Origin: an uncultured Ruminococcus sp.
Lineage (GTDB): Bacteria; Bacillota; Clostridia; Oscillospirales; CAG-272
Reading direction: 5' to 3'
DNA: 48,477 nt
NCBI GenBank assembly: GCA_902778725.1
Contig: CACYYS010000019.1
Coordinates: forward strand, 1 to 48,477
Under the pieces are notes generated by a model that saw nothing but the letters and a program-made list of their open reading frames with translations, was not told where the DNA came from and did not search any database. This document shows positions 2 to 33,710 of the stretch, piece by piece. Numbering within the stretch: position 1 is the first letter of the stretch; every line of letters starts with the position of its first letter. The position numbers were made by a program, and so were the translations under genes.

Positions 2-181
2 GGCGACGCGCTTGTCGAAGCATTCCTTGCCGCGCATCCGGAGGTAAGCGATACCGAACTGCGCAATGGGACTTACGTCTCCCCCCAAACGGGCGACAGC
101 GCGGTCTTCCTCCTCCCCGCGGCGGCTCTCGTCCTCTCCGTGATCCTCCTCGCCGCGGGAAAGAGAAAACGGAAAAGCTGA
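2..181 (+). CDS. C-terminal end of a secreted, cell-wall-sorted protein (partial)
   Basis: Only the last 59 codons are in the window; the start lies to the left. The visible end reads SPQTGDS, then a hydrophobic stretch (AVFLLPAAALVLSVILLAA) and a GKRKRKS tail. That is the layout of a Gram-positive cell-wall sorting signal, with SPQTG in place of LPXTG, similar to the (S/P)PXTG motifs accepted by some clostridial sortases. It is the first of four neighbouring genes with nearly the same tail, so it probably belongs to the same surface-protein family. The next gene follows 14 bp downstream, which suggests co-transcription. Its function cannot be judged from the tail alone. Confidence 0.8.
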   Translation, partial: GDALVEAFLAAHPEVSDTELRNGTYVSPQTGDSAVFLLPAAALVLSVILLAAGKRKRKS

Positions 182-195
182 AAAGGAGGTCTCTT

Positions 196-1044
196 ATGTA
201 CCGTCCCATTCTTTTTTCAAAACAAAAAATCGCCGTTTTCCTTGCTTTGGTTTGCGCGGCATTCCTTTTGCTAAATCCTGTTTTTCCCTCCGCCGCCGCT
301 TCTTCGGAAACCTTCGTCATAGATTCCGCCGGAGGTGAACTCCTCTCCGGCTTGACGAACGACGCCGCGCTCGAGCTGTTCGCAAAGGCGGAAGAGTACG
401 CGCAGTATTTCACGCAGACCCGCAGCTATTACGCGGAGTCGGGCAGCGCCGCAAAAACGATCGCCCTCCCCGACGGACTCCCGAACACGGTCACCCGTTC
501 ATTCGAGAACCTCGCCGCGCACAAAACGGTTTCATATACCTACGGTGTTTCGGACAGAAAGACGGAAGATGAATGGCTGACCGTCCTTCAAACGGTTTTC
601 TCCGAAGACGCGGCCCGGGCGGTCATGGCGGAAAAAGCGGACGGCGTTCCGCTCTGTCTGGTGGAAAACGGATACCTCTATGAAATGATCTCCCACAAAG
701 TAGAGCAGGGCCCTTATCACCTCATCAAAGCCGGACTGACACGGACGCAGGATGAAGCGGAAACGGTCGTTTTTCACGCGGAGATCTATCCGGAACAAGT
801 CGGAGATTTTGCTTTCTGGGCAAACGATATGCAGCGTACCTCTTATGAATACGTTTTGAAAAAGCAGAACGGAGCGTGGATCTTCTCTTCCTTTCGTCTC
901 CCGTACTGGATCGCCAGAGACACGCTCGCCCTGAATGTATCTTCCCCTGCGACGGGCGACAGCGCGGTCTTCCTCCTCCCCGCGGCGGCTCTTTCCCTCG
1001 GCGGGCTCCTCCTCGCCGCGAAAAAGAGAAAACGGGCCGACTGA
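196..1044 (+). CDS. Secreted, sortase-type anchored protein of tandem family (copy 2)
   Basis: 282 residues. A signal peptide (hydrophobic residues about 12-35, ending near SAAA) leads into a ~215-residue extracellular domain, then PATGDS, a membrane segment and a KKRKRAD tail. The domain has an N-terminal helix-like part (ALELFAKAEEYAQYF) and a C-terminal strand-rich part ending KKQNGAWIFSSFRLPYW. This resembles the copy at 2095-2889 (ENGNWRFTSFRLPYQ). The layout is loosely like the IseA family of DL-endopeptidase inhibitors (secreted proteins that restrain cell-wall hydrolases), but that is a weak resemblance from memory. The start is supported by AAGGAGG 8 bp upstream. Likely co-transcribed with its neighbours. 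The surface location is well supported; the function is unknown. Confidence 0.85.
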   Translation: MYRPILFSKQKIAVFLALVCAAFLLLNPVFPSAAASSETFVIDSAGGELLSGLTNDAALELFAKAEEYAQYFTQTRSYYAESGSAAKTIALPDGLPNTVTRSFENLAAHKTVSYTYGVSDRKTEDEWLTVLQTVFSEDAARAVMAEKADGVPLCLVENGYLYEMISHKVEQGPYHLIKAGLTRTQDEAETVVFHAEIYPEQVGDFAFWANDMQRTSYEYVLKKQNGAWIFSSFRLPYWIARDTLALNVSSPATGDSAVFLLPAAALSLGGLLLAAKKRKRAD

Positions 1045-1072
1045 TCGGATATTACGAAAAAGGAGTACAACA

Positions 1073-1885
1073 ATGAAAAAAGCGTTCGCAATTCTTTCTT
1101 TTGCCCTGTCTTTTCTGCTCCTCTTCCCCTTTTCCGCGCAGGCGTATTCCCTCGATAATCAAAAACACAGAAACGGGGAAATTGACAGAGACGGCAGCAA
1201 ATTTGCATCCGGAGTATCCGACGATTCTTTGTGGGCGGCTTTTTGGGAATTGGATTTGATGACGGCAGAATATACTCCGTTTTTCAGAGCGAAAAGCAAC
1301 ATTCAGACTGAACTGCTTCCCGAAGGGGTTTCCGAGGAAATCTGGGAGAACGGGATCCGCTACGAGCTCTCGTCGAGTTTTCCTGCCAATACTCCCTCCG
1401 GGTGGGGCCCGGACGGGTTGTTGTCCAAGAGCGAAATAGAAAGGCTATCCCAACCGATCACCCTCGGAGGCAAAACCTTTTATAACGTGATCGAACGGAA
1501 CGGTTATCGCTATTTTGCCGCGTTCCCGTCGCTCTATTACTACAAACAGAATAACATTATCGAAGAGATTTCCATTGAACGGATCGAAGATACCGCAGAC
1601 AGGATCGTGGTCAACGTGACCGTCACGGGGCTCGGGGTAAGCGTAACGTATCCGGTGACTTATTCCGTTGTCAAAACAGGATCGCAAAACACTCCGAAGC
1701 CTTTTGCGGTCGAATGGACAAGTTCCTCTTTCGCTCTGCTTGACGCCTATCTCACCCAAAACGGACTGTCCCCCTTTGACATCTCTCCCCAAACAGGCGA
1801 CAGCGCGGTCTTCCTCCTCCCTGCGGCGGCTCTTTCCCTCGGCGGGATCCTCCTCGCCGCGAAAAAGAGAAAACGGACAAGTTGA
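1073..1885 (+). CDS. Secreted, sortase-type anchored protein of tandem family (copy 3)
   Basis: 270 residues from the ATG at 1073, chosen because AAGGAG precedes it by 7 bp and a clear signal peptide follows (MKKAFAILSFALSFLLLF, cleavage near AQA). An in-frame upstream extension overlaps the previous gene and lacks this signal. The extracellular part is only distantly like copies 2 and 4, so the family diverges in the exposed domain. It ends SPQTGDS, hydrophobic segment, KKRKRTS. The DNA of this tail is nearly identical to that of copies 2 and 4. Function unknown; a surface protein covalently attached by sortase is the likely fate. No sortase gene lies in the window. Confidence 0.82.
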   Translation: MKKAFAILSFALSFLLLFPFSAQAYSLDNQKHRNGEIDRDGSKFASGVSDDSLWAAFWELDLMTAEYTPFFRAKSNIQTELLPEGVSEEIWENGIRYELSSSFPANTPSGWGPDGLLSKSEIERLSQPITLGGKTFYNVIERNGYRYFAAFPSLYYYKQNNIIEEISIERIEDTADRIVVNVTVTGLGVSVTYPVTYSVVKTGSQNTPKPFAVEWTSSSFALLDAYLTQNGLSPFDISPQTGDSAVFLLPAAALSLGGILLAAKKRKRTS

Positions 1886-1908
1886 CCGAAAAGAGAAAAC
1901 GGTTCCGC

Positions 1909-2062
1909 ATTGCTGGTATTGATATAGGAAACAATAATAGTATTCTTTTGAACGATTGTTGATCATCCTGATTTGACCGCCGCATTTAACGGTGTTCATA
2001 TCGCACCGATCGGTGAAGTTTATGATGCGTGTAAAGATATATATCTAGCATTTGCGGAATAG
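1909..2062 (+). pseudogene. Possible frameshifted gene remnant
   Basis: Between copies 3 and 4 of the surface-protein family lies an AT-richer stretch with two protein-like reading frames and no start. One frame (1909-1962) reads IAGIDIGNNNSILLND and stops. The frame one base back (1958-2062) continues VDHPDLTAAFNGVHIAPIG, EVYDACKDIYLAFAE and a stop. Joined by one base, they look like the tail of a single decayed protein. I cannot name the parent family. The stretch may simply be the leader of the next gene. Confidence 0.25.
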
Positions 2063-2094
2063 GAAGAATTGTTTTTTTGAAAGGAGAAAAAGTA

Positions 2095-2889
2095 ATGAAA
2101 AAAGCAGCCGTTCTTTTCATTTCGTTTATTCTTTTGTTGGCCTTTGCTGTTTCTGCGTTTGCGGAAGGAGAGGCTATCGTCAAAAATGAAAAGCTGATCC
2201 CTTCTGAATCGACGGAGAAATCCGGTTTTTCCGACGCGGACTTCAAAGAACTGTATACCAAAGCGTATTATATCGGAAGGATGTTCACGCTTCTGTCCGG
2301 AACGCCCGATATGTTGACGCCGGGATACACAAAAGGCGAGACGGCAAAAACGGCAACGGTCCCCGAAAACGAAAAAACGCTGGAGTTGACTTCGGAGAAA
2401 ACGGGGAAAAGTTTTCGTTATACCGCGGCGGGGATCGAGGGTTTATCCGAAGAGTCGATCCGTGCGTATATGAACACGGTTTTTTCCGAAAATCTGACAA
2501 ATTGGTTTTTTGCTTTGGAGACGCCGCAGGGACTTCCGTTTGTCGTAGAAAAAAACGGACGGATCTATTATGCGTCGTACGGTGCGGCAAATGAGGGGAC
2601 TGCCGAGATAACAAGAACATCGGATGAAGAAAGCAAGGTCGTATTCCGTGTGACCGTTACCGCAAGCAAGGGCGCGTATTCCTCGGAATATGTTCTGGAA
2701 AAAGAGAACGGAAACTGGAGATTCACATCTTTCCGTCTCCCCTATCAGATTCTGGAAGAGAATAATGCACTCAGCGGAGCGGCAGGCGCTCCCCAAACGG
2801 GCGACAGTACGGTCTTCCTTCTCCCCGCGGCGGCGCTTTCCCTCGGCGGCGTCCTCCTCGCCGCGAAAAAGAGAAGACGGACCAGCTGA
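2095..2889 (+). CDS. Secreted, sortase-type anchored protein of tandem family (copy 4)
   Basis: 264 residues from the ATG at 2095; AAAGGAG sits 8 bp upstream, and a TTG further up (2077) would read through this ribosome site. A signal peptide (residues 1-23, ending AFAE) is followed by a domain like copy 2: a helix (DFKELYTKAYYIGRMF), a middle (ESIRAYMNTVFSENL) and the ending ENGNWRFTSFRLPYQ. These features recall IseA-like inhibitors of peptidoglycan DL-endopeptidases, a tentative match. It ends APQTGDS, a membrane segment and KKRRRTS. A strong hairpin terminator follows at 2912-2944, closing the tandem cluster. Confidence 0.85.
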   Translation: MKKAAVLFISFILLLAFAVSAFAEGEAIVKNEKLIPSESTEKSGFSDADFKELYTKAYYIGRMFTLLSGTPDMLTPGYTKGETAKTATVPENEKTLELTSEKTGKSFRYTAAGIEGLSEESIRAYMNTVFSENLTNWFFALETPQGLPFVVEKNGRIYYASYGAANEGTAEITRTSDEESKVVFRVTVTASKGAYSSEYVLEKENGNWRFTSFRLPYQILEENNALSGAAGAPQTGDSTVFLLPAAALSLGGVLLAAKKRRRTS

Positions 2890-2911
2890 CCGAAAAGAAA
2901 AACGGTCCCGC

Positions 2912-2944
2912 AAAACGGGCAGGCGCCGCGCGCCTGCCCGTTTT
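2912..2944 (+). terminator. Rho-independent terminator after the surface-protein cluster
   Basis: A perfect 14-bp stem (2912-2925 with 2931-2944) around a 5-base loop, beginning with AAAA and ending with TTTT, lies 23 bp after the stop of copy 4. It is nearly symmetric, so it could act on either strand. Confidence 0.8.
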
Positions 2945-3428
2945 CGTTCGGGGAGCGGGAAGCTAACGAAAACTCCTTCCGTCTCGCTTCGCGCGACACC
3001 GGCCCGGCGGGGTCCCCGGAAAAATCCGTAAGGATTTTTGGGGGATCGGGCCACGGGGAGGGAGCCTTTTCCCGCTTTGCAGGCGCGGAGGTGGCCTGTC
3101 ACCCGGCGCGCCGGATCGCGCTTTTGTTTTGTTCCCGCGCCGGTTTTTGCGTGTGGGGGATTAGATCCGCTATGTTTGCGCTTTCCCGCGCACAACAAAA
3201 AGCCGGTCCATTCCGTAACGGACCGGCTTTTGGGGAAGGAGCTTCTGTGAATACACGTTCTCTGCTCCCTGCGTCTTTTGAAAAGTCTTTTGCCTACTTT
3301 TCTTCAGAAAAGTACGGCGGCTTTTGGGGAAGGAGCTTCTTTGAATACGCTTTTTCCTTTCCCTGCCCCTTCAAAAAGTCTTTTGCCTACTTTTCTTCAG
3401 AAAAGTAGGTTTCTTCAGAAAAGTACGG
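2945..3428. repeat. Gene-free mosaic of dispersed intergenic repeats
   Basis: No credible gene lies between the surface-protein cluster and the acyl-CoA synthetase; open frames here have no ribosome site or protein-like composition. The stretch is built of modules that recur at 40110-41050. These are: (i) 2962-3027, a direct match to 40668-40735; (ii) a hairpin at 3020-3039; (iii) about 3056-3195, matching 40250-40380 in the opposite direction; (iv) a terminator-like hairpin (3198-3231, GCCGGTCC arms); and (v) two tandem ~95-bp units ending in the palindrome CTACTTTTCTTCAGAAAAGTAG (3291-3312 and 3387-3408), plus a fragment. It has the look of a miniature repeat family that collects at gene ends. 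Confidence 0.7.
3020..3039 (+). repeat. Covarying hairpin repeat, copy A
   Basis: The hairpin AAAAATCC-GTAA-GGATTTTT is flanked by conserved GGTCCCCGG on the left and GGGGATCGGGCC on the right. Two further copies (40474-40493 inverted, 40720-40738 direct) keep the flanks but change both arms in a matching way. Confidence 0.6.
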
Positions 3429-8910: not shown

Positions 8911-9507
8911 ATGGACGCGATCGAAAAACTGAAGGGGACCGTCCGCCGCGAGCTGGACGCCGCCCTTGAACGGATGAAGACGGAGGATTTCCTCCCCGCC
9001 GCCCGCATGATCCGCGAGTCCGGGGCCGCCGGCGGGCGCCTGCACGTTACGGGGATCGGCAAGCCGGCGCATATCGCCGCCTACGCCGCCTCGCTCTTTT
9101 CCTCCACCGGCACGCCCGCGTACTTTCTGCACGGGACGGAGGCGGTCCACGGCTCCTGCGGGCAGCTCGTCCCCGGGGACGTGGTGATCTGCATCTCCAA
9201 CAGCGGGGAGACGGCGGAGCTGAAGGCGACCGCCGCGGCGATCCGCCGCAACGGCTGCAAGGTGATCGCCGTTACGGGCAATCCGGACTCCTGGCTCGCC
9301 CGCTTCGCCGATCTCACGCTGCTTGCCTCCGTCGGGGAGGAGGGCGGACCGCTCGACCGCGCGCCGCGCGCCTCGGTCCTTGTGGAGACGCTCGTTTTGC
9401 AGGGGCTCTCGGTCGTTTTGCAGGAAATGCGGGGCCTGACCCCGCAGGAGTACGTCCTGCGCCATCCGGGCGGCGCGCTCGGGCAGCTCCGGGAAAACGA
9501 AAAATAA
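8911..9507 (+). CDS. SIS-domain sugar-phosphate isomerase (KpsF/GutQ-like, no CBS domains)
   Basis: 198 residues from the ATG at 8911, one base after the ribokinase stop; the longer in-frame extension runs through the kinase gene and is rejected. The single SIS fold shows TGIGKPAHIA, the phosphate-binding loop ISNSGETAEL, AVTGNPDSWLA and the C-terminal HPGGALGQ, which is typical of D-arabinose-5-phosphate isomerases (ribulose 5-P to arabinose 5-P). Full KdsD/KpsF proteins carry two CBS domains that are missing here, so this is a short form. With the kinase it could form a two-step route from a free pentose into the pentose phosphate pathway. The last 42 bp of the gene recur at 11115-11156. 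Confidence 0.83.
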   Translation: MDAIEKLKGTVRRELDAALERMKTEDFLPAARMIRESGAAGGRLHVTGIGKPAHIAAYAASLFSSTGTPAYFLHGTEAVHGSCGQLVPGDVVICISNSGETAELKATAAAIRRNGCKVIAVTGNPDSWLARFADLTLLASVGEEGGPLDRAPRASVLVETLVLQGLSVVLQEMRGLTPQEYVLRHPGGALGQLRENEK

Positions 9508-9508
9508 A
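9467..9508 (+). repeat. 42-bp direct repeat, left copy (3' end of SIS gene)
   Basis: The end of the SIS gene, from CGGGCGGCGCG to AAAAATAAA including the stop, matches 11115-11156 at 41 of 42 positions in the same orientation. The two copies bracket the AlbA_2-type gene, as an integration or duplication event would leave them. Confidence 0.85.
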
Positions 9509-9542
9509 GCGCTTGTTTCCGGCGGGAACGCGCCGTTTCAAC

Positions 9543-9586
9543 AAAGATCGCGGGCGGGTCGGCTCTTCGACCCGCCCGCGATCTTT
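9543..9586 (+). terminator. Strong terminator hairpin after the SIS gene
   Basis: A 19-bp perfect stem (9543-9561 with 9568-9586) around GCTCTT, ending in TTT. It closes the kinase-isomerase operon and insulates the following gene. It lies inside the segment bracketed by the 42-bp repeats. Confidence 0.8.
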
Positions 9587-9680
9587 CGCTGCCGGTTTTC
9601 TGACGGCAAGTTTGTTGTGAGCAGGAAACGGACATTAAAAAGCTCCTTTTTTACAGAAAAATCAAATCGCTTCAAACGGC

Positions 9681-9709
9681 TTGGCAAATCAAATCAAATC
9701 CTATATAAT
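9681..9709 (+). promoter_or_regulatory. Near-consensus sigma-A promoter of the AlbA_2 gene
   Basis: TTGGCA (9681-9686), 17-bp spacer and a perfect TATAAT (9704-9709), about 45 bp before the start codon. It sits in an AT-rich stretch with CAAAT repeats, unlike the GC-rich neighbourhood, and would make the gene independently transcribed. Confidence 0.75.
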
Positions 9710-9755
9710 CTAATCACAATCGTTTTTGATCAGATAAGAAAGACCGGAGAGCATG

Positions 9756-11039
9756 ATGAAAGAAACCGAACGGATCCAATTCAAGAGACAGTTTGTAAAT
9801 GATCTGAATAAGGAAGTGATCGCGTTTGCAAACACAAACGGCGGCGAGATCTTTATCGGCATAGAAGATAACGGCGCGGTTGCGGGACTTTCCGATCCGG
9901 AGGCCGTTGAGCTTCAGTGCGTCAACCACATTTCAAGCACGGTAAAACCCGATATTTCGATGTTTGTAAAATACGAACGCATCCTGCTCGAAAAGAAAGA
10001 GGTATTAAAGATCACGGTAAACAAAGGCAGTATGTCCCCCTATTATCTTTCTTCAAAAGGAATAAGGCCGGAAGGCGTTTACGTCAGGCTCGGGACCGCG
10101 TCGGTCCCCGCAACGGAAACCGCGATCCTTTCCATGATCAAAGAGACGACGGGAGATTCTTTTGAAGAGACCCGCTCGTTGAATCAAAAGTTGACTTTCG
10201 TTCAGGCGGAGCAGGAGTTTTTTGCTGCCGGACTTCCTTTTGCGGAAGCGCAGAAACGTTCGCTCGGTCTGATCTGCAGAGACGGTTGTTATACCAATCT
10301 CGGGTTGCTTTTGTCGGATCAATGCGAACATAAGATCAAATTCGCCGTCTTTGAAGGGACGGAGAAAGAAGTGTTCAAAGACAGACACGAGTTTTCCGGC
10401 TCTTTGTTCCGCCAGTTAGACGATTTAATGAAGATGCTCGATCATTACAATAAGCTGAGCAGTCCCAGAATAGAAAAAATAAAACGGACGGATATCAGAG
10501 ACTATCCCGCGGAAGCGATCAGAGAAGCCGTGTTGAACGCTTTTATTCACAGGGATTACGGTTTGTACGGTTATACGCTCGTCAGCGTGTTTGACGACCG
10601 TATCGAGATCGTATCGCTCGGCGGGCTGATGCGCGGCGTGGAAATGAGCGATATCATGCTCGGGATCTCCTACCTTCGCAACAAACGCCTTGCCGAGATC
10701 TTCTATCGCCTGCATTTCATCGAAGCATACGGAACAGGGATCTCTAAAATCAAAAAAGCTTATACAAAGTGCAAGAAAGCGCCTGTTTTTGAGTGTTCGG
10801 CAAATGCTTTCAAGGTAACGCTGCCGAAAATGACCGCCGCGCCTCTTCCGGCCGGACAAACAGACAGAGAAACTCTCGTTTTGGATCTGATCCGTCAGAG
10901 GGGAGAGATCGGAAGATCCGATGCAGAAAAGATCCTGAACGTTTCTACCCCTACCGCGACCAGGATATTGACCGGTATGGCGCAAAAGGGCCTGATCAAG
11001 CGGATCGGTTCCGCAAGGAATACAAGATATACGCTGTAA
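9756..11039 (+). CDS. AlbA_2 (Schlafen-like) domain protein with C-terminal winged helix
   Basis: About 427 residues; the ATG at 9756 is better spaced from GGAG than the ATG at 9753. The N-terminal ~130 residues are an AlbA_2 domain (E-RIQFKRQF, IAFANTNGGEIFIGIEDNG, PEGVYVRLG). The middle (EAIREAVLNAFIHRDY, to GTGISKI) matches the GHKL-like ATPase region often joined to it. The end (GEIGRSDAEKILNVSTPTA) is a winged-helix DNA-binding domain. Such proteins are annotated as transcriptional regulators or ATP-dependent helicase-like proteins; several occur in defence or mobile contexts. GC content is visibly lower than in neighbours, and direct 42-bp repeats flank the unit, so acquisition by transfer is likely. 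The biochemical role is unknown. Confidence 0.85.
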   Translation: MKETERIQFKRQFVNDLNKEVIAFANTNGGEIFIGIEDNGAVAGLSDPEAVELQCVNHISSTVKPDISMFVKYERILLEKKEVLKITVNKGSMSPYYLSSKGIRPEGVYVRLGTASVPATETAILSMIKETTGDSFEETRSLNQKLTFVQAEQEFFAAGLPFAEAQKRSLGLICRDGCYTNLGLLLSDQCEHKIKFAVFEGTEKEVFKDRHEFSGSLFRQLDDLMKMLDHYNKLSSPRIEKIKRTDIRDYPAEAIREAVLNAFIHRDYGLYGYTLVSVFDDRIEIVSLGGLMRGVEMSDIMLGISYLRNKRLAEIFYRLHFIEAYGTGISKIKKAYTKCKKAPVFECSANAFKVTLPKMTAAPLPAGQTDRETLVLDLIRQRGEIGRSDAEKILNVSTPTATRILTGMAQKGLIKRIGSARNTRYTL

Positions 11040-11114
11040 GAGAAAGGGTTTGAGCGATACGCCGGGAGGGGATCCTTTGCCGTTTGTCGGTGCCGGTGAG
11101 AGCGCTGCTTCGGT

Positions 11115-11156
11115 CGGGCGGCGCGCTCGGGCAGCTCCGGGGAAACGAAAAATAAA
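11115..11156 (+). repeat. 42-bp direct repeat, right copy
   Basis: Second copy of the SIS gene 3' end, one mismatch (A to G at the 28th base). Directly after it comes a terminator hairpin that would suit the original SIS gene, as if the segment 9509-11156 had been inserted between gene end and terminator. Confidence 0.85.
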
Positions 11157-11178
11157 AACGCCGCTTGCGCGGCAAAAG

Positions 11179-11210
11179 AAGCGGTCCCCGCCGTGCGGCG
11201 GGGACCGCTT
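11179..11210. terminator. Bidirectional terminator between convergent genes
   Basis: A 14-bp stem (AAGCGGTCCCCGCC with GGCGGGGACCGCTT) and GTGC loop, with TTTCTT on the + side. It lies three bases beyond the stop of the DUF4185 gene on the - strand and serves the AlbA_2 side on the + strand. Confidence 0.75.
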
Positions 11211-11213
11211 TTC

Positions 11214-28536: not shown

Positions 28537-31239
28537 TCATTTTTTCGAGAGCTCGATCTCCCATACAAGCGACTGATAGAAGGTCGCCCGGGAGGTGATG
28601 ACCATCATATACCGGCCGTTCTCCCGCGTGTAGACGGAGGAGACGCGCGGCTCGTAGACCGCGCCCATCACGCCGCCCTGCCTGATGACAAGGACGGGAT
28701 CCGACCATTTGCCGTCCAGCGTTTTCGCCGTCCGCATCACGATGCTGTTTTTCAGGCTGCCCGCGTAGGCGGTGCAGTAGAGGACGACCCATTCGCCGAG
28801 GTATTCGTTGTACATCACGCCGACGCCGCCGACCGCGGCTTCGATCGCCGCGAAGTTGGAGTTCATCGCCGCTTCGCCCCGCTCAAAGATCCCGCGGCCG
28901 TTTCCGTCCCGGCCCGTCATGTATTCGTAGGCGGAAAGATCTTCGATCCGGTCGGCCTTCACGCGCATCAGGCGGCAGGCGCCCTTGCGCCCGCCGGGAA
29001 CGCCGAAGACGTAGACCCAGTCCCCGTCGAGGACGGGATAGAGCTGGGCGAGCCCGTAGGCGGGGATCTCTTTTACGGGGTCGGAGACGTCCGTCCCCGC
29101 CGGCCAGCGCAGATCGGAGGGGATCTCCCAGCTGCGGCCCATATCGGTCGATTTGGCGAGCGCGCCGTAGTTGCAGGGCCAGCAGCCGTTGCGGCCCGTG
29201 GTGCCCCACGCGTTGACGGACATATAGTAGAAGTAAAGAGTGTCGCCGATCTTCAGACCGCCCGTCGGGATCTTGGACTCCTCCGTCCCTTTTTTGTGCA
29301 GGGAGGGGAGGAACTCTCCGGCAAAGGGCTTGCTCTGGTAGCTGTCGCCCATGTAAAAGCCGTCGATCCGGAGCCCGTCGGTGTAGTCGAAGTCGCTTGT
29401 GAACGCGAGACTGTTCGCGCGCCAGATCTTGCCGAGGCCGTCTTCGGAGTTGCTGTCCCCGAACGCCATCAGGACGGAATCTCCGCAGTCGATCATATAA
29501 CCGCCGCCGACGCGCGCGATGTCGTAGTTCGAGAGGGTGCGGTTGTCGGAGTATTCGCCGGTGAGGAGGGAGACGAAGCGCAGGCTCTCGACCCGGTGAA
29601 GGGAATAGGCGGGGTCGGAGAGGGTGCGCGACGCCGCGGAGTAAAGTCCGGCGAGCTGCGCCCGGTCGTTTTCCCGCGCCTTTTGCTCGGCGATCAGCGC
29701 TTCCGCGTCGGCGATGCGGTCCTTCGCGTCGGGCCCGAGCGCGTTCTTTTCCTCGTCGGTCAGCGGCTTCGTCGCGGAAAGCGAAACGGCGGGCGGATCG
29801 GTATAGCGGATCCCGTTTGCGGTGAGGACGGGCGCCCGGACGGCGAGGCAGGAGGCGTCGCTTTGCTCGGCGGAGGCAAAGGCGCTGCCGGAAAGCGATA
29901 CGGCGCTTCCGAGGATCAGACGGGCGCCGGGAATGCCTTTGGCGGACGTTCCGGAGGGGAAGCTCCCGCCCGTGACGCAGAGGACCGTGTCGGCGCGGGT
30001 GGAAACGGTGATCGCGTCGGAGGTCTCCTGGCGGACGGACAGGTCCTTTGAGAGGAAGGCGCCGCCGGTGATCTTCAGGGTGACGCTGCCGGTGACCGAT
30101 ACGGGATTGCGGTCCGGGTTGCTCCCGGTGCGGGAGAGAAGATAGACCGGACCCTCGAAGGTCCCGCCGCTGATCTCCATATAGACCGCGCCGGCGACGC
30201 TGTTCATCCCGGAGGCGGAGTTGAAATTCGTTCCCGAGGAGGCGGTAAAGCGCCCGCCCTTGATAAAGACGGAGAAGGAGACGCCCTCGTCGACCGTGCC
30301 GAACGCGGACTTCGCGTCCGTCCGGTTGTTGCCGCCGCGGATATACTGCCAGGTCCCGGACGTCACCGTGACGGAGGCGTCCTTGTGACAGCCGAGCTGG
30401 TAGGAGTTCATGTGGAGGGAGGAGGGAGCGTTGCAGCCGCCGAGCAGCGCGATATAGGTCGAAACGCCGCTTGCCCGGGAGCAGTCGACGTCCGCGCCGA
30501 CCGTGACGTTGTTGTACCGGAAGCAGAAGAAGAGGTCGTTCTTTCCGGCGGAGACGGCCAGCCCCTCAAGGAGGTAGTCGCCGTAGAAGTTCGCGTCGGC
30601 GGAGAAGGAGAGCTTCGCGCCCGCCGTTTTGCGGTAGTCGACGCCGTCCCGGACCGAGGTCAGGGTAACGGGCGCTTCGTTTGAGGGGAAGTAATAGGTC
30701 TCCGGGAAGGAGAGCGGACCGCAGACGACGACCGTGCCGCCCGTTTTCTTGGTCTTGCCGAGGCCGTCGGCGAGGGTGGCGGCGTTCTCCGGGGAGGAGC
30801 CGTCCTTTTGGCCGGCGCCCTTCTGCGTGACGAAGACGACCGGCGCGTCGGGATCTCCGCCTTGAGGCGGCTCGGGCGCTTCGGTCTCCTGCGCCGTTGT
30901 TTCGGGCGCCGCGGTTTCGGGCGCCGCGGTCTCGGGGACTTCGGTCTCCGGCGCTTCGGTCTGCGCGGGCTCCGTTTCGGATCCCGTGGTTTCCGGCGCG
31001 GCGGTTTCGGTCTCTCCGGTTTTTTCCGTTTCCGGCGCTTCGGTCCCGGGCGTCCCGGTCTGCGCGGGCTCCGTTCCGGGCGCCGCGGTCTCCGGCGCGG
31101 GGAGCTCCGTTTCGCCGGGTCTTTCCGTTTTTGCCGTCGCCGTACCGTCCGGGACGGCGGGCGCGCAGCCGACCGGCAGAATAGAGCAGAGAAGGATCAG
31201 GGCGATCAGAGAATAGGTGTTGCGGTTCGCTCGTCTCAC
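28537..31239 (-). CDS. Beta-helix + DUF4185 (GH183-like) lipoprotein
   Basis: 900 residues. The lipobox is LPVGC. A long Glu/Thr/Pro/Ala repeat stalk (ETAAPET, ETEAPETE) covers about residues 30-130. A beta-helix domain follows (GGTVVVCGPLSF, TLTSVRDGVDYRK, then FIKGGRF, MEISGGTFEGPVYLL, LKITGGAF). The C-terminal DUF4185 domain begins near LLTGEYSDNRT and shows FGDSNSEDG, WRANSLAFTSDFDYTDG, KIPTGGLKIGDTLYFYY and YNEYLGEWVV. Both halves occur as separate genes at 12927 and 11214. It should sit on the cell surface and bind and cut a polysaccharide, possibly D-arabinan if the GH183 link holds. Its start overlaps the end of the upstream paralogue by 4 bp. Confidence 0.87.
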   Translation of the reverse strand: MRRANRNTYSLIALILLCSILPVGCAPAVPDGTATAKTERPGETELPAPETAAPGTEPAQTGTPGTEAPETEKTGETETAAPETTGSETEPAQTEAPETEVPETAAPETAAPETTAQETEAPEPPQGGDPDAPVVFVTQKGAGQKDGSSPENAATLADGLGKTKKTGGTVVVCGPLSFPETYYFPSNEAPVTLTSVRDGVDYRKTAGAKLSFSADANFYGDYLLEGLAVSAGKNDLFFCFRYNNVTVGADVDCSRASGVSTYIALLGGCNAPSSLHMNSYQLGCHKDASVTVTSGTWQYIRGGNNRTDAKSAFGTVDEGVSFSVFIKGGRFTASSGTNFNSASGMNSVAGAVYMEISGGTFEGPVYLLSRTGSNPDRNPVSVTGSVTLKITGGAFLSKDLSVRQETSDAITVSTRADTVLCVTGGSFPSGTSAKGIPGARLILGSAVSLSGSAFASAEQSDASCLAVRAPVLTANGIRYTDPPAVSLSATKPLTDEEKNALGPDAKDRIADAEALIAEQKARENDRAQLAGLYSAASRTLSDPAYSLHRVESLRFVSLLTGEYSDNRTLSNYDIARVGGGYMIDCGDSVLMAFGDSNSEDGLGKIWRANSLAFTSDFDYTDGLRIDGFYMGDSYQSKPFAGEFLPSLHKKGTEESKIPTGGLKIGDTLYFYYMSVNAWGTTGRNGCWPCNYGALAKSTDMGRSWEIPSDLRWPAGTDVSDPVKEIPAYGLAQLYPVLDGDWVYVFGVPGGRKGACRLMRVKADRIEDLSAYEYMTGRDGNGRGIFERGEAAMNSNFAAIEAAVGGVGVMYNEYLGEWVVLYCTAYAGSLKNSIVMRTAKTLDGKWSDPVLVIRQGGVMGAVYEPRVSSVYTRENGRYMMVITSRATFYQSLVWEIELSKK

Positions 31240-33710
31240 GGCGTCCTCCTTTTTGTTCGGATCGGAAGCGGAGCTTCCGTTTTCAGCCTTTTTTGGAGAG
31301 CTCGATCTCCCAGATGATGGAATTGTAGATGTCCCAGCGCGAGGTGATGACCATCATATACCGGCCGCCCTCCCGCGTGTAGGCGGAGCAGACGCGCGGC
31401 TCGTAGACGGAGCCGAAGGTCGCCTGGCTCATCACGAGCACCGGCGCGCAGGACGATGCTGTTTTTGAGCGAGCCCGCCTGCGGCGTGCAGTAGAACATC
31501 AGCCACTCGCCGAGGTATTCGTTATACATCACGCCGAGACCGCCGACGCACTTGTCGACCGCGGCGTAGTTGGTCATCATCGCTTTTTCGCCGCGCTCGA
31601 AGATCGCGTTGCCGTTATCGTCCCGGCCGGTCATATATTCGTAAGCGGAGAAGTTTTCGATCTGGGACTGCCTGACGCGCATCAGGCGGCAGTAGCCCTT
31701 GCGTCCGCCCGGCACGCCGAAGAAATAGACCCAGTCGCCGTCGAGGACGGGATAGAGCTGGGCAAGCCCCCACTCCGGGATCTCCTCCACGGGGTCGGAG
31801 ACGTCGGTCCCCGCCGGCCAGCGCAGGTCGGAGGGCGTCTCCCAGCTGCGGCCGAAGTCGGTGGACTTGGCGAGCCCGCCGTAGTTGCAGGGCCAGCAGC
31901 CGTCCCGGTCGGTCTCCCGCCAGCTCGCGACGGACATATAGCAGAAGTAGAGGGTGTCCCCGATCTTCACGCCGCCGGTCGGGATCTTCGACTCCTCGGT
32001 CTTGTTCTTTGTGTCGTGCCCGGAGAGGAGGAACTCGCCGGAGAAGGGCGAGCGCTGGAAGGTCTCGCCCATATAAAAGCCGTCGAGGGTGATGCCGTCG
32101 GTGTAATCGTAGTCGGTCGTGAAGGCGAGAGCGTTGGCGCGCCACGGCTTGCCGAGCTCGCCCTCCGGGTTGCAGTCGCCGAAGGCGAGGAGGGCCGTGC
32201 CGCCGCAGTCGATCATATAGCCGCCGCCCGCTCCCGCGATGCCGTAGTTGGTGATCGTTTTGTTGATCGAGTATTCGCCCGTCAGCATCGAGACGAATTT
32301 CACCCCGCGCACGCCGTCAAGAGAGTAGAGCTTGTCGGGATCGCGCAGGCGCATCGAGGACGCCGGGGTGCTCTTTTCCAGCTTCCGGACCTTTGCCAGC
32401 GCGGCGGCGGTCTCGGGGATCAGGTTTTTCTCTTCCTCCGCCGTGAGGGGGCCGGTCTTCGGCTTCTCTTCGGGGAAGGGAGGGTTGGTATAGGAAGGGG
32501 CGTTTGCCTTCAGGACCGGCGCGGCGATCTGATCGGCGCTGCCGGAGAGGGTCTTCGGGAAGGACTTCGCGGTAACGCCCGTTCCGTCCGCGAGCAGCAC
32601 GCCGCTGCCCGTATCGCCCGTGGCGAGAGTCCCGGAGGGGAAGGTCCCGCCGGCGACGCAGAGGGTCGTCTCCGCAGAGGCGGCGAGGGCGATCTTGTCG
32701 GAGGTCGTCTGGCGGACGGCCAGCTCCTTCGAGCGGAATTCGCCGCCGGTGATCTTCAGGGTGACCCGGCCCGTGACCGAGACGGGGTAGTTTTCCGTAT
32801 TGCTGCCGGTGCGGGAGAGAAGATAGACCGGACCCTCGAAGGTCCCGCCGTTTATCTCCATATAGACCGCGCCGGCGACGCCGTTCATCCCCGCGGCGGA
32901 GTTGAGATCCCGCCCCGAGGCGGCGGAAAAGGTCCCGCCCTCCACAAAGATCGCAAAGGTGACGCCGTCCTCCACGGTGCCGAAGGCGGACTTCGACTGG
33001 GTGCGGCGGTTGCCGCCGCGGAGATACTGCCAGACGCCGCCCTTCACCGTGACGGCGGCGTCCCTGCGGCAGCTGACCTGTTCCGCGGTGCGGTAGGCGC
33101 TGGAGGGGACGTTATAGCCGCAGATCAGCGCGATGTCGGTCGAAACGCCGGCCGCGCGGACGCAGGCGACGTCCTTGCCGAAGGTGACGTTATGATACTG
33201 GAGGCAGAAGAGGAGATCGGCTTTTTCGGCGGAGATCGCCAGCCCGTCAAAGAGATAGTCTCCGTAAAAGAAGGCGTTGGCGGAGAAGGCGAGCTTCGCG
33301 TCCGCCGCCGTCCGGTAGTCGACGCCGTCCCAGACGGAGGTCAGGGTAACGGACGCGCCGTTTGAGGGGAAGAAATAGTCCGTGCCGAAGGAAAGCGGCC
33401 CGCAGACGACGACGGTGCCGCCCGCTTTTTTTGTTTTGCCGAGGCCGTCGGCGAGGGTGGCGGCGTTCTCCGGGGAGGAGCCGTCCTTTTGGCCGGCACC
33501 GTTCTGCGTCACGAAGACGGTCGCCGCTTCCGCGTCAAAATCGTCTTCGGGGAGGAAGGTCGTATCGGACCCGCCGGCGGTGCTGTCCTCCGGGGTCGCG
33601 GGCGTTTTCCCGCACGAGCAGAGCGGCAGGGAGAAAACGAGGAGCGCGAGAAGGAAGGAAAGGAGACGGAAGACCGCGGGGGAGGAAATAATGGTTTTTC
33701 TTTGCTTCAT
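31236..33710 (-). CDS. Beta-helix + DUF4185 lipoprotein, C-terminus frameshifted
   Basis: 824 residues from the ATG at 33710 (AAGGAG 10 bp upstream; signal peptide with LCSC lipobox). The layout matches the paralogue at 28537 but with a much shorter linker: beta-helix (GGTVVVCGPLSF, TLTSVWDGVDYRT, MEINGGTFEGPVYLL) then DUF4185 (MLTGEYSINKT, FGDCNPEGE, WRANALAFTTDYDYTDG). After SLKNSIVLR the frame breaks. Compared with the paralogue, about 36 bp are replaced by 4 bases (31442-31445), a net loss of 32. The lost frame is intact downstream (VLVMSQATFGSVYEPRV to IWEIELSKKG, stop at 31283-31285). As written, the last ~70 residues are out-of-frame Arg/Leu-rich sequence. The propeller's final strands are therefore missing and the protein may be inactive. 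Confidence 0.8.
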   Translation of the reverse strand: MKQRKTIISSPAVFRLLSFLLALLVFSLPLCSCGKTPATPEDSTAGGSDTTFLPEDDFDAEAATVFVTQNGAGQKDGSSPENAATLADGLGKTKKAGGTVVVCGPLSFGTDYFFPSNGASVTLTSVWDGVDYRTAADAKLAFSANAFFYGDYLFDGLAISAEKADLLFCLQYHNVTFGKDVACVRAAGVSTDIALICGYNVPSSAYRTAEQVSCRRDAAVTVKGGVWQYLRGGNRRTQSKSAFGTVEDGVTFAIFVEGGTFSAASGRDLNSAAGMNGVAGAVYMEINGGTFEGPVYLLSRTGSNTENYPVSVTGRVTLKITGGEFRSKELAVRQTTSDKIALAASAETTLCVAGGTFPSGTLATGDTGSGVLLADGTGVTAKSFPKTLSGSADQIAAPVLKANAPSYTNPPFPEEKPKTGPLTAEEEKNLIPETAAALAKVRKLEKSTPASSMRLRDPDKLYSLDGVRGVKFVSMLTGEYSINKTITNYGIAGAGGGYMIDCGGTALLAFGDCNPEGELGKPWRANALAFTTDYDYTDGITLDGFYMGETFQRSPFSGEFLLSGHDTKNKTEESKIPTGGVKIGDTLYFCYMSVASWRETDRDGCWPCNYGGLAKSTDFGRSWETPSDLRWPAGTDVSDPVEEIPEWGLAQLYPVLDGDWVYFFGVPGGRKGYCRLMRVRQSQIENFSAYEYMTGRDDNGNAIFERGEKAMMTNYAAVDKCVGGLGVMYNEYLGEWLMFYCTPQAGSLKNSIVLRAGARDEPGDLRLRLRAARLLRLHAGGRPVYDGHHLALGHLQFHHLGDRALQKRLKTEAPLPIRTKRRTP

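What the first reader, a model, noticed from the sequence alone, without database searches (positions are those of the whole stretch)
9467..11156. AlbA_2 gene bracketed by 42-bp direct repeats of the SIS gene's 3' end
Positions 9467-9508 and 11115-11156 match at 41 of 42 bases, including the stop codon. The enclosed ~1.6 kb has lower GC, its own consensus promoter and a protein of a type seen in mobile or defence settings. The right copy runs directly into a terminator that would suit the SIS gene. This is what integration at a gene end, restoring the gene, would leave. No integrase is present, so the element would be carried by an outside enzyme or be a remnant.
Basis: partly seen in the sequence, partly recalled or inferred. 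Interest (0 to 1): 0.6.

Follow-up and report, generated by a model that had tools for sequence, protein, structure and literature searches.

The report
Integrase-less single-gene cassette at gene end
A 1.65-kb piece of DNA carrying one Schlafen-like gene has slipped into the very end of a sugar-isomerase gene without breaking it; two sister species still have the empty site, and relatives of the gene sit in similar repeat-bracketed packets at many different gene ends, so it looks like a minimal mobile cassette that borrows its integration enzyme.

Summary
In detail: 9467-9508 and 11115-11156 match at 41/42. So 1,648 bp were inserted, or precisely lost elsewhere, leaving SIS intact and a displaced 42-bp tail. 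The only gene inside is SLFN_AlbA_2-HATPase_c_4-wHTH, at 48% GC in 66% GC surroundings, with its own promoter. It is not a one-off. Of 120 related AlbA_2 genes, 25 are bracketed by direct repeats, against 6 of 261 other ORFs (p=5e-9; p=9e-4 after dropping the window, the sirTM group and doubtful cases). Targets differ: rpsI, sirTM, pyrE, a PHP gene, bare terminators. rpsI 3' ends are a known ICE/IME site. At sirTM, recombinase-free cassettes with other defence/toxin genes share one junction sequence. Best reading: a CIME-like, integrase-less cassette moved by a recombinase acting in trans. The enzyme is not identified, and no excision was observed. New variant of a known kind.

The parts
8911..9507 (+). 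target gene: SIS-domain sugar-phosphate isomerase (198 aa, KpsF/GutQ-like), intact; follows a PfkB kinase gene
   Evidence: Pfam SIS 1.9e-21, NCBIfam KdsD/KpsF hits below cut-off; same length in G002/G003
9467..9508 (+). left 42-bp repeat = 3' end of the SIS gene with stop codon
   Evidence: continuous with the SIS gene; identical to the congeners except 3-4 lineage-specific bases
9509..11114 (.). inserted body, absent from G002 and G003
   Evidence: alignment of both empty sites
9543..9586 (.). perfect hairpin (19-bp stem) at the left end of the insert, probable insulating terminator
9681..9709 (+). promoter TTGGCA-17-TATAAT embedded in AATCAAATCAAATC / TAATCTAATCA repeats (probable operator)
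   Evidence: block conserved upstream of the five closest AlbA_2 genes
9753..11039 (+). AlbA_2 gene, 428 aa: SLFN_AlbA_2 (4-120), HATPase_c_4 (277-357), MarR-type wHTH (370-425)
   Evidence: 74-43% identical family members; Q9 at a near-invariant E9
11115..11156 (+). right 42-bp repeat = displaced 3' end of the SIS gene with stop codon
   Evidence: continuous with the ancestral downstream terminator in G002/G003
11177..11212 (.). ancestral SIS / DUF4185 bidirectional terminator
   Evidence: conserved in the empty sites

Best explanation
The 1,648-bp unit (one 42-bp copy plus 9509-11114) is an integrated single-gene mobile cassette. It recombined with the 3' end of the SIS gene, regenerated the gene end on one side and displaced the old end to the other. 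It carries a promoter, probably autoregulated through operator repeats and the protein's wHTH domain, and a Schlafen-like AlbA_2/ATPase protein as sole cargo. It encodes no recombinase, so integration most likely used a tyrosine-type integrase acting in trans from an ICE, IME or phage, as for CIMEs. SHOWN: the repeats, the empty sites, the absence of an integrase, and the recurrence of the arrangement for AlbA_2 genes at many other gene ends including rpsI. INFERRED: the enzyme class, the circular intermediate, the transfer vehicle, and a role in defence or genome conflict.
For: Empty sites in two congeners. 25/120 AlbA_2 genes bracketed by repeats vs 6/261 other ORFs, Fisher p=5e-9; 12/109 vs 6/261, p=9e-4, after removing the window, the sirTM group and doubtful repeats. 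In L132 the repeat starts in the last codons of rpsI; rpsI is a published ICE/IME/CIME site (PMC7563491; PMC5090054). At sirTM, displaced tails in several genomes begin at the same base behind one arm, TGGTGCGCAATAAACAW; with up to 2 mismatches the arm plus core occurs 17 times in 299 family genomes, reversed control 0. Cargoes there differ (AlbA_2, AbiEi/ii, RhuM-Doc, DUF4143-like ATPases, a YoeB-like toxin) and none is a recombinase. AlbA_2 distribution is patchy, 22/345 genomes of the family; the closest relatives (69-74%) sit in unrelated contexts. The host genome has only one intact-looking tyrosine recombinase ORF and one degenerate one.
Against: No integrase using the SIS site was found, no circular or excised form is visible, and the 42-mer was not seen with other cargo. 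Both window copies carry three lineage-specific bases absent from the congeners, so the donor tail came from the same lineage; in-situ duplication would also explain this. Repeats are detectable for only about one fifth of the AlbA_2 genes. A tyrosine recombinase lies within about 6 kb of the gene in only one of about 100 loci (L121).
Confidence: 0.7

Rival explanations
1. Homologous (Campbell-type) integration: a circular DNA carrying a SIS 3' end and AlbA_2 recombined by RecA-type homology with the chromosomal gene, with no dedicated site-specific enzyme.
For: A 42-bp shared stretch is enough for low-frequency homologous recombination (general knowledge). Repeat lengths vary from 26 to 166 bp and identities from 77 to 100% among loci. 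Both window copies share lineage-specific bases.
Against: It does not explain why a circle would carry just a gene end, nor the shared junction point and arm of the displaced sirTM tails in different genomes, nor the use of the known integrase site rpsI.
Confidence: 0.15
2. Insertion by an unknown staggered-cut or template-switching mechanism that duplicated 42 bp of target DNA.
For: The copies are nearly identical and host-like. Repeats at different loci have unrelated sequences, as target duplications would.
Against: At sirTM the copies are only about 77-91% identical and carry an arm that the native gene lacks, so they came in with the element. Repeats favour gene ends and terminators, not random sites. 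No transposase and no terminal inverted repeats.
Confidence: 0.09
3. Not an insertion: AlbA_2 is an old resident and the second SIS tail is a remnant of a partial gene duplication, or the join is an assembly error.
For: The genome is a fragmented metagenome bin, 85% complete, 96 contigs.
Against: Two congeners have the uninterrupted single copy and no close AlbA_2 anywhere. Both flanks are colinear with them. The 42-bp repeat is shorter than ordinary reads. Composition is foreign.
Confidence: 0.04

Closest known systems
CIMEs (cis-mobilizable elements) of Firmicutes
   Same: Small elements (1.2-13 kb with cargo in S. salivarius) at gene 3' ends, flanked by att repeats, lacking recombination and mobilization genes; tandem arrays at one target gene; rpsI among the targets (PMC7563491)
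   Different: CIMEs are defined as decayed ICEs/IMEs moved in cis after accretion; no parent element was found here. The same single gene recurs alone at many unrelated sites, which does not look like random decay.
Integron gene cassettes
   Same: Single-gene units without recombinase; arrays of varied, often defence/toxin cargo at one site (sirTM)
   Different: No integron integrase in the host genome. The shared site is a host gene tail, not a promoterless array fed by intI. Cassettes carry their own promoters. attC features were not formally modelled.
Defence hotspots and islands (E. coli, Pseudomonas)
   Same: Variable defence cargo at fixed conserved-gene loci (PMC10121019, PMC10250203; titles and abstracts only)
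   Different: Here the units are one gene each, bounded by detectable gene-end repeats
Schlafen-family AlbA_2 nucleases (SLFN12, SLFN13)
   Same: Same AlbA_2 fold family; the two active-site glutamates of SLFN12 align with family positions E4 and E9
   Different: Bacterial ATPase + wHTH fusion; the window protein has Q at position 9, so nuclease activity is doubtful for this copy

Membership tests
CIME (cis-mobilizable element) | flanked by attachment-site repeats | tested here: met
   42-bp repeats 41/42, single copy at the empty site
CIME (cis-mobilizable element) | no recombination, mobilization or conjugation genes | tested here: met
   only one gene, AlbA_2, in 9509-11114
CIME (cis-mobilizable element) | derived from an ICE or IME by deletion | tested here: inconclusive
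   no ICE/IME or integrase found with this site
CIME (cis-mobilizable element) | moved in cis by accretion with an ICE/IME at the same site | not testable with these tools
   needs conjugation or excision experiments
Integron cassette | attC site with foldable palindrome and an integron integrase in the genome | tested here: inconclusive
   only two PF00589 matches in the genome, one degenerate; the 75 bp downstream of the gene fold no better than shuffles, z=0.23; attC not formally modelled
Transposon / insertion sequence | transposase and terminal inverted repeats | tested here: not met
   no transposase and no terminal inverted repeat pair at the ends
SLFN_AlbA_2 protein family (PF04326) | profile score above the curated cut-off | tested here: met
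   76.2 bits vs cut-off 25.3
Active Schlafen-type RNase | both active-site glutamates (SLFN12 E200, E205) | tested here: not met
   E4 kept, E9 is Q in the window protein while near-invariant in relatives (PMC8285493)

The most novel reading that the evidence does not exclude
AlbA_2 and other one-gene defence/toxin cassettes of Clostridia form a class of minimal recombinase-free mobile units that have repeatedly acquired attachment sites of different resident integrases at conserved gene ends, and stack into arrays (for example at sirTM), so working as an integron-like defence-gene exchange system built on ordinary gene ends.
Probability: 0.35. Interest if true: 0.72.

Novelty: new variant of a known kind. 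Interest (0 to 1): 0.52.

Why it matters
Defence genes are known to turn over quickly, but how single genes move without an element of their own is poorly understood. Here the unit is one gene with a promoter and a gene-end repeat, the ancestral site is preserved in sister species, and the pattern recurs at many targets. That makes the question directly testable: give such a cassette a candidate integrase in a laboratory strain and look for excision. Repeats of gene ends around lone genes could also serve to find new defence genes in gut Clostridia.

Tried and rejected
Looking for the same 42-mer elsewhere in the genome, relatives and IMG/VR: nothing. The viral scan with the single protein found no relative; the alignment scan found three short contigs, not followed. 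The closest relatives (L086-L090) have no detectable bracket repeats. L099 in a sister genome (G732) gave one terminator copy with other genes after it rather than a clean empty site. L176 relatives gave a paralogous locus without insert but no orthologous empty site. Some bracket repeats were set aside as probable operators, paralogous flanks or simple sequence (L101, L153, L074, L085, L170, L078). A match of the sirTM arm to the E. coli dif XerC arm was considered and dropped as not meaningful in Clostridia (from memory, untested).

Full report
OBSERVATION. The direct repeat is present as described: 9467-9508 and 11115-11156, 41 of 42 bases, spacing 1,648 bp. The 42-mer occurs nowhere else in the 2.1-Mb genome. 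The left copy is the 3' end of an intact SIS gene (8911-9507) with its stop codon; the right copy repeats these codons and the stop and runs into a strong hairpin terminator (11177-11212). Between them lies one gene (9753-11039), 48% GC against 66% in the flanks, encoding SLFN_AlbA_2, HATPase_c_4 and a MarR-like wHTH domain. The TTGGCA-17-TATAAT promoter sits in a block of AATCAAATC / TAATCTAATCA repeats conserved upstream of the five closest AlbA_2 relatives, which suggests autoregulation by the wHTH domain (inference).

EMPTY SITE. Two congeners, G003 (L021) and G002 (L022), align to the window on both sides (81-88% identity) but have a single copy of the SIS tail followed directly by the terminator and the convergent DUF4185 gene. 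Their SIS proteins have the same 198-aa length. The insert is therefore 1,648 bp including one repeat copy, and the gene end is preserved. Gain in the window lineage is the simpler reading, because the two congeners with the aligned site carry no close AlbA_2 anywhere and the sister SIS loci examined (L012/L059, L013/L060, L014/L061) show no such insert. Precise loss in the others would equally mean a removable unit. Both window copies carry three bases (positions 2, 9, 23 of the 42) that differ from both congeners, so the tail in the element came from the same lineage.

A RECURRING ARRANGEMENT. AlbA_2 relatives are patchily distributed (22 of 345 genomes of the family at E<=1e-40); those 69-74% identical to the window protein sit in unrelated contexts. 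I compared the 1-kb flanks of 120 unique AlbA_2 genes: 25 have a direct repeat at E<1e-4, 21 of them spaced under 2 kb, against 8 of 263 other ORFs of 300-600 aa in the same loci, two of which were AlbA_2-derived (Fisher p=5e-9 against 6/261). After removing the window, all sirTM-site loci and six doubtful repeats the contrast is 12/109 against 6/261, p=9e-4. Repeat sequences are unrelated from locus to locus. Where readable they are gene 3' ends or terminators: rpsI in L132, a PHP gene in L176, a convergent gene in L121, terminators in L099, L100, L113 and L179; in L103 a piece of pyrE; in L076 the start of a methylase-like gene. The 3' end of rpsI is a published target of ICEs, IMEs and CIMEs (PMC7563491; PMC5090054), which ties these cassettes to ordinary integrase sites. 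The null set was not restricted to accessory genes, so the enrichment may apply to mobile single genes in general.

THE sirTM SITE AS A MECHANISTIC PRECEDENT. In several Lachnospiraceae genomes the AlbA_2 cassette lies at the 3' end of a SirTM-type sirtuin gene that follows a macro-domain gene. A displaced gene tail follows the cassette. The displaced tails in different genomes begin at the same base, behind a common arm, TGGTGCGCAATAAACAW, that the native gene lacks. The arm plus core pattern (up to 2 mismatches) occurs 17 times in 12 of 299 family genomes, the reversed control never. Other cargoes at the same junction are AbiEi/AbiEii, a RhuM-Doc gene (PADLOC PDC-S23), DUF4143-like ATPases and a YoeB-like toxin, sometimes in tandem (L150, L122, L288). 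One sirTM gene (L222) has no displaced tail. None of these cassettes carries a recombinase; among about 100 AlbA_2 loci only L121 has a tyrosine recombinase nearby. A fixed crossover point with diverged gene tails is what site-specific recombination leaves and argues against simple target duplication. The step from this site to the SIS site of the window is by analogy.

WHO MOVES IT. The window's genome has two PF00589 matches, one in a 301-aa open frame and one degenerate. No ICE, IME or phage using the SIS end was found. A trans-acting tyrosine integrase is therefore inferred. Homologous recombination of a circle is the main rival.

WHAT THE CARGO DOES. The nearest solved structures are RecG-like/AlbA_2 proteins and human Schlafens. 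SLFN12's two active-site glutamates (PMC8285493) align with positions 4 and 9 of the family. Position 9 is near-invariant Glu but Gln in the window protein, so this copy may lack RNase activity. PADLOC matches are weak (pAgo-associated models, PDC-S50). A defence or genome-conflict role is likely from the neighbours' company but untested.

VERDICT. The element is best described as CIME-like: it has the repeats and lacks mobility genes, but origin from an ICE/IME and cis-mobilization could not be tested. What is new is the repeated use of one compact AlbA_2 unit at many gene ends, and the recombinase-free multi-cargo arrays at sirTM; no description of either was found in the paper searches made, which cover open-licence papers only.

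Noticed in passing
L150, L122, L161, L147, L140, L219, L220, L221, L277, L278, L284, L287, L288: The 3' end of sirTM genes in Lachnospiraceae carries arrays of recombinase-free defence/toxin cassettes, with displaced sirTM tails behind a common arm TGGTGCGCAATAAACAW.
   Followed up: partly
L132:5185-7492: AlbA_2 cassette in Faecalicoccus acidiformans at the 3' end of rpsI, a known ICE/IME site; the repeat starts in the last codons of rpsI.
   Followed up: partly
L121:3606-5770: XerC/D-like tyrosine recombinase and a Kwa-like gene directly beside a repeat-bracketed AlbA_2 cassette; candidate trans-acting enzyme.
   Followed up: no
window 9777-9779 (AlbA_2 codon 9): Q replaces a near-invariant Glu that aligns with a Schlafen active-site residue.
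   Followed up: partly
window 75-2912: Several 84-125 bp interspersed direct repeats (75-181, 952-1047, 1779-1909, 2789-2912), plus a pair of about 90 bp at 3224-3407.
   Followed up: no
window 28540-33530: A large tandem duplication, about 76-81% identical, period about 2.7 kb.
   Followed up: no
L058:1534-1583 and 2962-3011 (G010:C55): A distant AlbA_2 gene bracketed by 50-bp repeats made of TAGGTCACTTT-like motifs, possibly operators rather than attachment sites.
   Followed up: no
L065 (MT838004.1): Record named 'Bacteriophage sp.' looks like bacterial chromosome (NAD biosynthesis genes) next to an AlbA_2 gene 48% identical to the window's.
   Followed up: no
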